NCBI RefSeq assembly: GCF_020832205.1
Contig: NZ_JAFIFD010000048.1
Span: 17,570-81,569, forward strand
Direction: 5' to 3'
Source: Exiguobacterium sp.
Lineage (GTDB): Bacteria > Bacillota > Bacilli > Exiguobacteriales > Exiguobacteriaceae
Length of the DNA stretch: 64,000 nucleotides
Under the pieces are notes generated by a model. That model saw only the letters and a program-made list of their open reading frames with translations. It did no database searches and had not been told where the DNA came from. Positions 15,611-42,161 of the stretch are shown here, piece after piece; the first letter of the stretch is position 1; every line of letters begins with the position of its first letter. Both the position numbers and the translations under genes were made by a program.

Positions 15611-15693
15611 AATACGTTTGCTCAAGAAAGCGACGTACTTCCAGACAATAAATCTGTATATAGAAATCGTAACGTTTTGTCATCAATATATTG

Positions 15694-15748: not shown

Positions 15749-16543
15749 ATGAAACAATATCACGATTTATGCACCCACATCCTCGAGCACGGTGTCGTCA
15801 AAGAGGACCGGACCGGTACCGGCACGACGAGCGTATTCGGCTATCAAATGCGTTTCAACCTTCAGGACGGGTTTCCCCTCATCACGACGAAAAAACTACA
15901 TACCCGTTCGATTATCCATGAACTGCTTTGGTTCATTTCAGGCGACACGAACGTCCGTTACCTGCAAGACAATGGAGTCCGCATTTGGAACGAGTGGGCC
16001 GATGAGGACGGCAACCTCGGTCCCGTCTACGGTGCCCAGTGGCGATCGTTCCCGAAACCCGACGGCTCGAGCGTCGATCAGCTCGCGGAAGTGATTGAAC
16101 AGATCAAGACGAACCCCGATTCACGTCGCCTCGTCGTATCGGCTTGGAACCCAGGTCAACTGAAAGATATGGCGCTCCCGCCGTGCCATTTGTTGTTCCA
16201 ATTTTATGTCGCGGACGGGAAGTTATCGTGCCAGCTGTATCAACGAAGCGCTGACACGTTCCTCGGTGTCCCGTTCAATATCGCGTCTTACGCCTTGTTG
16301 ACGCATATGGTCGCGCACGTCACGAACCTTGAAGTCGGCGATTTCGTCCATACGCTCGGCGATGCGCACATCTATCATAACCACCTCGAGCAAGTGAAAC
16401 TCCAGTTGACACGTGAGCCGCGTCCGCTCCCGAAACTTAACATTTTACGGGACGTCTCATCGATCGAAGACTTCCGTTTTGAAGACTTCGAGATCGTCGA
16501 TTATGACCCGCATCCCCACATAAAAGGAGCCGTCAGCGTATGA
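15749..16543 (+). CDS. thyA: Thymidylate synthase
   Basis: 264 residues, exactly the length of the E. coli-type enzyme. Converts dUMP to dTMP using methylenetetrahydrofolate and generates dihydrofolate. Catalytic cysteine in [12 protein letters not shown], folate/dUMP segments [22 protein letters not shown] and [11 protein letters not shown]-terminal [16 protein letters not shown] upstream. The stop overlaps the dfrA start (ATGA), so the enzyme that makes dihydrofolate is coupled to the one that recycles it, as in Bacillus. Confidence 0.98.
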
Positions 16544-39683: not shown

Positions 39684-39711
39684 AAAAAATCGGGACGCTG
39701 TCGCCCCGATT
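39684..39711 (-). terminator. Terminator of nrdDG
   Basis: AATCGGG-N10-CCCGATT followed by TTTT on the reverse strand at the nrdG stop. Confidence 0.78.
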
Positions 39712-40168
39712 ACACTTTATTCAAAAAGATGATGCGCTGATTGCTAGAACCTCTAAAGCGTAGTGACCGGTCGAGTAACGTTTCCACAAACTTGCCGTCG
39801 ACGAGTACGTCAGCATGATCGAGAACGTCATTGACCTGTTCATCTTCGAGTTGCTCGAGCGCCTCGAGCGTATACCCGGTATACACCCAGACGTTTTTCC
39901 CGAGCGCCTTGCAGCCGCGGACGAGCCGAGACAGCTCGCGCGGCTGCAAAAACGGTTCTCCTCCCGACACCGTGACGCCGTCCCAACCGGACGCTTCGAC
40001 CCGTTCGAGCAACGACTCGACCGTCACCTCGTCCCCGCCTTTCGGATTCCACGATTCAGGGTTATGGCAGCCGCGGCATCGGTGCGGACAGCCGGCTGTA
40101 AAGATGACGGTCCGCACACCGGGCCCGTCGACGACTGATTCATCAAGTACGGATAGGACGCGCATCAT
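39710..40168 (-). CDS. nrdG: Anaerobic ribonucleotide reductase activating protein
   Basis: 152 residues. Radical-SAM enzyme that generates the glycyl radical on NrdD. Cluster motif GCPHRCRGCHNPESW (CxxxCxxC) and the SAM-binding segment VTVSGGEPFLQ. Begins inside the end of nrdD, with GAGGG six bases before the ATG (a second ATG follows at once), so production is coupled. Normal length. Confidence 0.96.
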   Translation of the reverse strand: MMRVLSVLDESVVDGPGVRTVIFTAGCPHRCRGCHNPESWNPKGGDEVTVESLLERVEASGWDGVTVSGGEPFLQPRELSRLVRGCKALGKNVWVYTGYTLEALEQLEDEQVNDVLDHADVLVDGKFVETLLDRSLRFRGSSNQRIIFLNKV

Positions 40169-41993
40169 GTTTCACCCTCGCTCTTTCTTCTTCTCGTTTT
40201 GCCGAGTTCCAACGGTCCATCGTGCCGACCAAGTAACCGGTAATACGGCGGATTCGTTCGATTTGTTCACGTTCCCCGCACGTCGGGCACGCCTCATCAA
40301 TGATTCCTTCGAGTCCGCAACTGCCGCAACGGTCGACCGGATGGTTTATCGAGCCGTAACCGACGTCATACTGACGCATGAGTCTGACAATCGACTCGAC
40401 CGCTTCCGGATTATGGGCAAGTGACCCGTCGACTTCGACATACGTGATATGACCGGCATCACAAAGCGCATGATACGGCGCTTCTAGCCGAATTTTTTCT
40501 CGGATCGATACGTTCTGATAGACCGGGACGTGATAGGAATTCGTGTAGAAGGCGCGATCGGTCACTCCTTCGATCATTCCAAACGACTGTTGGTCTTTTA
40601 AAACAAATTTACCGGATAACCCTTCTGCCGGCGTTGCCAATAGCGAGAAGTTCAAGTCGTAGCGTTCTGCCGCCTCCTTTACCCGCTCGGCCAATCGAGT
40701 CACGATATCGAGACCGAGCCGCTCAGCATCTCTTGATTCTGCATGCGTCGCCCCGGCGAGCACGCGCAACGTTTCCGCGAGTCCGATAAAACCGACAGAC
40801 AACGTCCCTTGTTTCAACACTTCCCGAAGCTCATCGTCAGGGGCGAGCGTCTCACTACCGCGCCAGACGTGCTGGGCGTACAAGAAGCGGAACTCATCCG
40901 CGCGACGTTTGCACTGATATTCAAATCGTTCAAGCAATTGTTCGATGGCGATGTCAGTATACGCATCGAGCGTCTCATAAAACGATTTCAAATCAGACGA
41001 GACGAGTGCGATCTTGACGAGATTCAGCGTCGAGAACGACAGATTCCCCCTACCGATCGACGTCTCGGCACCGTGACGATTCCCCATGACTCGGGTGCGA
41101 CACCCCATGTAAGCGACCTCCGAGGCAGGCGTGCCGTCATAATACGCAGCATTGAACGGGGCGTCGACAAAGGAGAAGTTCGGGAAGAGTCTTTTCCCGG
41201 TAACCTGGCACGCCAACCGGAACAAGTCAACGTTCGGATCATCCTCGTGAAAGTTGACTCCTTCTTTCACTTTAAAAATTTGAATCGGGAAAATCGGCGT
41301 TTCCCCGTTCCCGAGTCCCCGTTCTGTCGCCTTTAACAATTCCCTGATGAAGACACGGCCCCATAGCGATGTGTCGGTCCCATAATTGATGGAGACGAAC
41401 GGCACTTGACCGCCGCCGCGGGAATGCATCGAGTTCGCGTTATGGATGAACGCCTCGCATGCTTGGTACGTTGCCTTGACCGTCTCTTGTTCTGCAATCA
41501 ATTCGATTTGGTTATCCGATAAGTCGACCGGAAGTGACTTCAAACGTTCCACATGCCGGTCGTACGTTTTCTCGACGTACGGGGCGAGATCAGCATCAAA
41601 CGTCGGAAACGCTTGCCCGCCATGCTGCATGTTTTGGTTCGCTTGAAGGATGATCGATGCGAGTGCCATCGCCGAACGGATATCTTGAGGTGGTCGGATC
41701 GTCCCGTGTCCGGTATGGAATCCGTTCGTGAGCAAGTCCCCGAGAGGGATTTGACAACACGTCGTCGAACCGGTCACATAGTAGTCCGCATCATGGACGT
41801 AAAGGAAATTGTCCGCAATCGCTTGTCTTGAGCGCTCCGACAACAAGTACGCCGTTGCCAACTCTTTTGACACTTCAGACGATAGGCGCGCCAATTTACC
41901 GAGCGGTGACTTCCCGTCGACGTTAGCGTTTTCTTGCACTAAATCTTGATCGGGGAGGACGCAGACGTCCTTGTACAGTTGAACTAAATTCAT
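40143..41993 (-). CDS. nrdD: Anaerobic ribonucleoside-triphosphate reductase (class III)
   Basis: 616 residues from ATG 41993 (GAGGTG upstream); the track start is ten codons out. Makes deoxyribonucleotides without oxygen. Likely active-site cysteines in GSTTCCQIPLG and AYMGCRTRVMGNRHG; a C-terminal zinc site CGSCG ... CPTCG; the glycyl-radical segment RRITGYLVGTMDRWN near the end. The N-terminal ATP-cone domain found in longer family members is missing, so overall activity control probably rests on transcription. Two NrdR boxes lie just upstream. Confidence 0.95.
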   Translation of the reverse strand: MNLVQLYKDVCVLPDQDLVQENANVDGKSPLGKLARLSSEVSKELATAYLLSERSRQAIADNFLYVHDADYYVTGSTTCCQIPLGDLLTNGFHTGHGTIRPPQDIRSAMALASIILQANQNMQHGGQAFPTFDADLAPYVEKTYDRHVERLKSLPVDLSDNQIELIAEQETVKATYQACEAFIHNANSMHSRGGGQVPFVSINYGTDTSLWGRVFIRELLKATERGLGNGETPIFPIQIFKVKEGVNFHEDDPNVDLFRLACQVTGKRLFPNFSFVDAPFNAAYYDGTPASEVAYMGCRTRVMGNRHGAETSIGRGNLSFSTLNLVKIALVSSDLKSFYETLDAYTDIAIEQLLERFEYQCKRRADEFRFLYAQHVWRGSETLAPDDELREVLKQGTLSVGFIGLAETLRVLAGATHAESRDAERLGLDIVTRLAERVKEAAERYDLNFSLLATPAEGLSGKFVLKDQQSFGMIEGVTDRAFYTNSYHVPVYQNVSIREKIRLEAPYHALCDAGHITYVEVDGSLAHNPEAVESIVRLMRQYDVGYGSINHPVDRCGSCGLEGIIDEACPTCGEREQIERIRRITGYLVGTMDRWNSAKREEERARVKHDARPIRT

Positions 41994-42004
41994 TTCGCAA
42001 CACC

Positions 42005-42020
42005 TCACTATATATTGATT
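42005..42020. promoter_or_regulatory. NrdR box 1
   Basis: TCACTATATATTGATT contains CTATATATTG, matching the NrdR consensus core CwAtATaTwG. Lies just before the nrdD ribosome binding site. Confidence 0.75.
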
Positions 42021-42045
42021 CATCGTTCGTTATAAACGGTTGAAT

Positions 42046-42061
42046 GACCTATATATTGATT
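42046..42061. promoter_or_regulatory. NrdR box 2
   Basis: GACCTATATATTGATT repeats the same thirteen bases (CTATATATTGATT) exactly 41 bases from box 1, near four helical turns, so two NrdR complexes would bind on the same face. Confidence 0.75.
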
Positions 42062-42123
42062 ATGTCACGTTTGACGAATACAAGGCGGGACGAAATTGTG
42101 ACAGTTGATCCGAGCGCAGATGA

Positions 42124-42161
42124 GAAAAAACAGCCGAATCCTAGGCGTGGACTCGACTGTT
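42124..42161 (-). terminator. Terminator of the formate/nitrite channel gene
   Basis: Reverse strand AACAGTCGAGTCC-N7-GGATTCGGCTGTT then TTTTT; thirteen pairs including G-U. Confidence 0.75.

What the first reader, a model, noticed from the sequence alone, without database searches (positions are those of the whole stretch)
42005..42061. Two NrdR boxes upstream of nrdDG, about four helical turns apart
CTATATATTGATT occurs twice, 41 bases apart, just before the anaerobic ribonucleotide reductase genes. Each contains the NrdR core CwAtATaTwG. The usual spacing between paired boxes is about three turns; 41 is close to four, so cooperative binding across a longer loop is implied.
Basis: partly seen in the sequence, partly recalled or inferred. 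Interest (0 to 1): 0.55.

Follow-up and report, generated by a model that had tools for sequence, protein, structure and literature searches.

The report
Four-turn NrdR operator before nrdDG
Two identical DNA sites in front of the oxygen-free ribonucleotide reductase genes of an Exiguobacterium are a well-conserved landing pad for the repressor NrdR with an unusually wide gap between them, a spacing already known in Streptococcus; the gap itself may fold into a hairpin in related species, which has not been described before as far as I could find.

Summary
CTATATATTGATT lies at 42008-42020 and 42049-42061, exactly 41 bp apart, just upstream of nrdD (start 41993, minus strand) in an Exiguobacterium genome. 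The pair is real: all 19 genomes of the genus keep two NrdR cores at 41 bp (18) or 42 bp (1), while most of the DNA between them has diverged. NrdR is encoded once in the genome. Genome-wide, a relaxed box-pair pattern hits only nrdD and the class I nrd operon. The class I operon also has a conserved 41-bp pair in 19/19 genomes, so four turns is the rule for both RNR operons here. nrdD of Bacillaceae relatives has 30-32 bp where a pair is found. Four-turn NrdR operators are already described: Streptococcus, 25-26 bp spacers, with binding and reporter tests (PMC12051234). This is a second lineage of a known variant, not a new system.

One unexpected extra: in the nrdD spacer the sequence varies, but in an eight-species clade it stays self-complementary (86% of pairs formed, compensatory changes at 8 of 11 pairs, slid registers at most 51%). 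The predicted transcript starts inside box 1, so this may be a 5'-terminal mRNA stem-loop. In the window itself the hairpin is weak.

The parts
42049..42058 (-). NrdR box 1 (promoter-distal from nrdD), core CAATATATAG; directly abuts the predicted -10, covers predicted -6 to +4
   Evidence: conserved in 19/19 genus genomes (one genome CTATATGTGG)
42008..42017 (-). NrdR box 2, core CAATATATAG; directly abuts the Shine-Dalgarno GTGAGGTG
   Evidence: conserved in 19/19 (CMATATATRG)
42018..42048 (-). 31-nt spacer between the cores (41 bp core to core, about 3.9 turns); sequence mostly variable, covarying inverted repeat in an 8-species clade, weak in the window
42059..42067 (-). predicted extended -10 element TGACATAAT (TGnCATAAT in 19/19); predicted +1 near 42052
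   Evidence: consensus match only, no TSS data
42095..42103 (-). conserved TGTCACAAT motif (core TCACA) about 37 nt upstream of the -10; possible activator site
   Evidence: alignment
42001..42008 (-). Shine-Dalgarno region GTGAGGTG of nrdD
40143..41993 (-). nrdD, class III anaerobic ribonucleoside-triphosphate reductase (ATG at 41993; the longer ORF start at 42023 would run through box 2)
   Evidence: start conserved across the genus
39710..40168 (-). nrdG, radical-SAM activase of NrdD
42129..42161 (-). intrinsic terminator of the upstream formate/nitrite transporter gene, separating it from nrdDG

Best explanation
The two sequences are a paired NrdR operator that brackets the start of the nrdDG transcript. 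When dATP is plentiful, NrdR loaded with dATP+ATP forms a tetramer. One dimer sits on box 1 (over the transcription start, against the -10) and one on box 2 (against the Shine-Dalgarno), four helical turns away on the same face of the DNA, and this blocks RNA polymerase. When dATP falls, NrdR lets go and nrdDG is expressed. Shown here: the boxes, their spacing and its conservation, the NrdR gene, the same spacing at the second RNR operon. Inferred from published NrdR work: nucleotide switch, tetramer, repression.
For: Both boxes at 41/42 bp in 19/19 Exiguobacterium genomes, with the inner spacer largely diverged (position frequencies). Class I nrd operon: CTAAATATAG / CAATATATAG pair 41 bp apart in 19/19, placed around a predicted -35/-10. 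One NrdR, 225.6 bits to TIGR00244, aligning without a gap to E. coli NrdR and about 3 residues longer than S. coelicolor NrdR up to the same point, i.e. consistent with the 7-residue-linker type that was tested as tolerant of 24-27 bp spacers. Genome-wide only the RNR promoters carry the relaxed pair. Published: S. pneumoniae nrdDG 25-bp and nrdHEF 26-bp spacers, a second KD minimum at 24-27 bp for four NrdRs, in vivo repression in an E. coli reporter at 26 +/- 1 bp (PMC12051234). 41 bp core to core equals a 25-bp spacer between 16-bp boxes.
Against: No binding or expression data for Exiguobacterium. The flanks outside the 10-bp core (aat...gtc/gtg) match the 16-bp consensus acaCwAtATaTwGtgt poorly. 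SpnNrdR bound its native long-spacer sites 13 times more weakly than short-spacer sites, so strength here is uncertain. The promoter and TSS are predictions.
Confidence: 0.93

Rival explanations
1. The 41-bp unit is primarily an RNA element: the transcript starts in box 1 and its first ~45 nt form a 5'-terminal stem-loop (the spacer) that protects nrdDG mRNA from 5'-end decay or tunes translation; the boxes are NrdR sites as well, so the four-turn spacing is set partly by the room that the hairpin needs.
For: Spacer self-complementarity with variable sequence: genus-wide 62.6% of cells paired against 46.7 +/- 2.8 in column shuffles; eight-species clade 86.4% against at most 51% in slid registers, compensatory changes at 8 of 11 pairs; single-sequence folds z < -4 in L015-L022. 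The class I 41-bp spacer, which contains promoter elements, is conserved in sequence and is not an obvious inverted repeat by inspection. Spacers of box pairs across 400 Bacilli show only a slight excess (0.383 at the dyad, 0.28-0.36 at other registers).
Against: The hairpin is weak in the window (z = -1.4) and absent in L026 and L029, not significant in L013, L014, L027 and L030. A second clade uses another register and shows no independent covariation. The class I operon has the same 41-bp spacing without a hairpin, so the hairpin does not explain the spacing. No TSS data; no Rfam match. Related sequences inflate covariation counts.
Confidence: 0.3
2. The palindromic spacer is a by-product: two palindromic boxes form an inverted repeat, and template switching during replication copies one half of the spacer onto the other, producing near-perfect palindromes centred exactly between the boxes, without function.
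For: The dyad lies exactly mid-spacer in the eight-species clade (S = 30 peak). A few unrelated pairs elsewhere, including the class I 33-bp pair of one Exiguobacterium (G015), are also near-palindromic.
Against: Most box pairs in other Bacilli are not palindromic; the clade of L024-L029 has its best register 3 nt off centre.
Confidence: 0.3
3. The repeats are binding sites of a different regulator of anaerobic genes (FNR/ResD type), not NrdR.
For: The operon is anaerobic and the 13-mer ends in TTGATT, reminiscent of an FNR half-site.
Against: The same cores and the same 41-bp spacing stand before the aerobic class I operon, and no other promoter in the genome carries the relaxed pair. The conserved part is the NrdR core, not the TTGATT tail. 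FNR and ResD sites were not searched for genome-wide.
Confidence: 0.03

Closest known systems
NrdR operators of Streptococcus pneumoniae nrdDG and nrdHEF (PMC12051234)
   Same: Pair of NrdR boxes with 25-26 bp spacer (41-42 bp core to core, four turns) at both the class III and the aerobic RNR operon.
   Different: In S. pneumoniae nrdDG box 2 holds the -35 and the -10 lies downstream; here box 1 follows the predicted -10 and box 2 abuts the ribosome-binding site. The spacer hairpin in the Exiguobacterium clade is not reported there (no hit for hairpin or stem-loop in that paper).
NrdR operator of Listeria monocytogenes nrdDG (PMC12051234)
   Same: Box 2 is close to the start codon (13 bp upstream of ATG there, 14 bp between core and ATG here).
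   Different: 16-bp spacer (three turns), overlapping the RNA polymerase site.
NrdR operators of nrdD in Bacillaceae relatives (Virgibacillus L167, Ectobacillus L171, Shouchella L173)
   Same: Two exact NrdR cores upstream of a homologous nrdD.
   Different: 31 bp core to core, three turns.

Membership tests
NrdR operator (paired NrdR boxes) | Two palindromic sites with core CwAtATaTwG | tested here: met
   Exact cores at 42008 and 42049
[quoted passage not shown]
   nrdDG identified; boxes within 66 bp of the start codon and abutting the predicted -10
NrdR operator (paired NrdR boxes) | Integer number of helical turns between box centres (31-32 bp, or 41-42 bp in the long form) | tested here: met
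   41 bp in 18 and 42 bp in 1 of 19 genomes; long form published in PMC12051234
NrdR operator (paired NrdR boxes) | nrdR in the genome | tested here: met
   One copy, TIGR00244 225.6 bits, cut-off 124.65
NrdR operator (paired NrdR boxes) | Boxes at the other RNR operons of the genome | tested here: met
   Class I operon, 41-bp pair in 19/19 genomes
NrdR operator (paired NrdR boxes) | 16-bp consensus acaCwAtATaTwGtgt including the outer three bases each side | tested here: inconclusive
   Flanks here are aat...gtc and aat...gtg; only the core is well matched
NrdR operator (paired NrdR boxes) | dATP/ATP-dependent binding that needs both boxes, and repression | not testable with these tools
   Needs MST/footprint and a reporter or nrdR deletion

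The most novel reading that the evidence does not exclude
In Exiguobacterium the nrdDG operator doubles as an mRNA leader: the DNA between the two NrdR boxes encodes a conserved 5'-terminal stem-loop, so one 51-bp unit controls both initiation (NrdR) and the fate of the message (stability or translation).
Probability: 0.3. Interest if true: 0.5.

Novelty: new member of a known kind. Interest (0 to 1): 0.33.

Why it matters
It shows that the four-turn NrdR operator, reported for Streptococcus, also occurs in a distant lineage of Bacilli, at both RNR operons and without exception in 19 genomes. That makes helical phasing look like a general property of NrdR sites and gives a natural comparison with three-turn relatives. 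The covarying spacer, if functional, would be a new layer of control of an essential enzyme. A possible NrdR pair before thyA would extend NrdR control from dNTP reduction to dTMP synthesis.

Tried and rejected
Three-turn pairing for the class I operon: the exact 33-bp pair (C12:22278/22311) that a strict search finds first is intact in only a few genomes, while the pair conserved in 19/19 is 41 bp. A general rule that NrdR spacers are palindromic: rejected, only a slight excess in other Bacilli. Hairpin of the second clade (L024-L029) as independent support: rejected, no covariation beyond shuffles. Rfam match of the leader: none. The 41-bp arrangement at nrdD of the sister genus (E. sibiricum group): not found; weak 31-32 bp pairs in three genomes only. 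Literature on NrdR and Exiguobacterium: one incidental paper. Literature on NrdR and thymidylate synthase: three papers, judged incidental from titles, abstracts and counts, not read.

Full report
What is there. The 13-mer CTATATATTGATT occurs at 42008-42020 and 42049-42061, exactly 41 bp apart. Downstream on the minus strand lie nrdD (40143-41993) and nrdG (39710-40168), both confirmed by curated models. A terminator at 42129-42161 separates them from the formate/nitrite transporter gene upstream. The window holds only three exact NrdR cores, where composition predicts 0.16, and two of them are these.

Is it an NrdR operator. In all 19 genomes of the genus, nrdD is preceded by two NrdR cores, 41 bp apart in 18 and 42 in one. 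The cores, the -10-like TGnCATAAT and the Shine-Dalgarno are conserved, and most of the DNA between the cores is not. The genome has one NrdR (TIGR00244, 225.6 bits). A relaxed box-pair search of the whole genome hits only nrdD and the class I nrd operon; the control gives none. A strict search first shows a 33-bp pair, but the pair conserved in 19/19 genomes is CTAAATATAG/CAATATATAG at -152/-111, again 41 bp; the third box at -78 is intact in only a few genomes. So both RNR operons of this genus use four turns. Where box pairs were found upstream of nrdD in Bacillaceae relatives they lie 30-32 bp apart, and the sister Exiguobacterium genus has no such pair at nrdD.

What is known. Four-turn spacing is established: S. 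pneumoniae nrdDG (25 bp between 16-bp boxes, i.e. 41 bp core to core) and nrdHEF (26 bp), a second affinity optimum at 24-27 bp for four different NrdRs, and repression of an E. coli reporter at 26 +/- 1 bp (PMC12051234). Two boxes are required, and each is held by one dimer of a tetramer. The Exiguobacterium NrdR aligns without gaps to E. coli NrdR, whose interdomain linker is seven residues, and is about 3 residues longer than the S. coelicolor protein.

How it most likely works. Box 1 sits against the predicted -10 and covers the predicted start site; box 2 sits against the ribosome-binding site. A dATP/ATP-loaded tetramer spanning both would block initiation. In the class I promoter, box 1 lies between a predicted -35 (TTGCAA/TTGAAA) and -10 (TATGAT), with box 2 just downstream (read by eye). 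Promoter assignments are consensus matches only. A conserved TCACA-containing motif about 37 nt upstream of the nrdD -10, with no good -35, suggests an activator as well, which was not pursued.

The unexpected part. The 31-nt nrdD spacer is variable in sequence but self-complementary in many species, with its dyad at the exact middle (pairing 0.56 at that register, 0.23-0.40 at others). In the eight-species clade L016-L023, 86.4% of cells pair, 8 of 11 pairs show compensatory changes, no column shuffle reaches the observed cell or covariation values, and slid registers reach at most 51%. Genus-wide the signal is diluted but present (62.6% against 46.7%). In the second clade the best register is shifted and shows no covariation beyond shuffles. 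In the window the hairpin is not significant on its own (z = -1.4). Across 51 box-pair spacers from other Bacilli there is only a slight excess, and the class I 41-bp spacer is sequence-conserved instead. Because the predicted transcript starts in box 1, the spacer would be a 5'-terminal stem-loop of the mRNA. The alternatives are a DNA-level symmetry or cruciform, or a by-product of template switching between two palindromic boxes. The data do not decide between these. Column shuffles do not remove relatedness, and the eight-species clade was picked after seeing the folds, so I hold the functional RNA reading at about 0.3.

Verdict. The finding is real and correctly read. It is a new lineage for a known operator variant; interest is modest, raised somewhat by the covarying spacer and the genus-wide rule.

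Noticed in passing
window 15654-15693: Candidate NrdR box pair CTGTATATAG / CAATATATTG, 30 bp apart, overlapping the promoter of thymidylate synthase (thyA, 15749-16543). The proximal box, or a near match to it, is present in 19/19 genus genomes; the distal box is at 30 bp in some and about 42 bp in others. Absent in the sister genus. NrdR control of thyA was not found in the held literature.
   Followed up: partly
window 42095-42103 (minus strand): Conserved TCACA-containing motif (TGTCACAAT in the window) about 37-39 nt upstream of the nrdD -10 in the genus, no good -35: possible ResD/FNR-type activator site.
   Followed up: no
G000:C12:22237-22320 (L008 1460-1543): Class I nrd promoter has three NrdR boxes (41 + 33 bp); several genomes of the sister genus have a similar triple layout (42 + 32 bp).
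   Followed up: yes
other Bacilli genomes G098 (76 places), G366 (7), G267 (6): Paired CAATATATAG...CTATATATTG sequences occur in many copies, far too many for an NrdR regulon; probably a dispersed repeat or another regulator's site.
   Followed up: no
nrdD of the two Exiguobacterium genera: NrdD is only 60-64% identical between the genera while the class I large subunit is about 80%; NrdD of Bacillaceae is as close (about 60%), hinting at replacement of nrdDG in one lineage.
   Followed up: no
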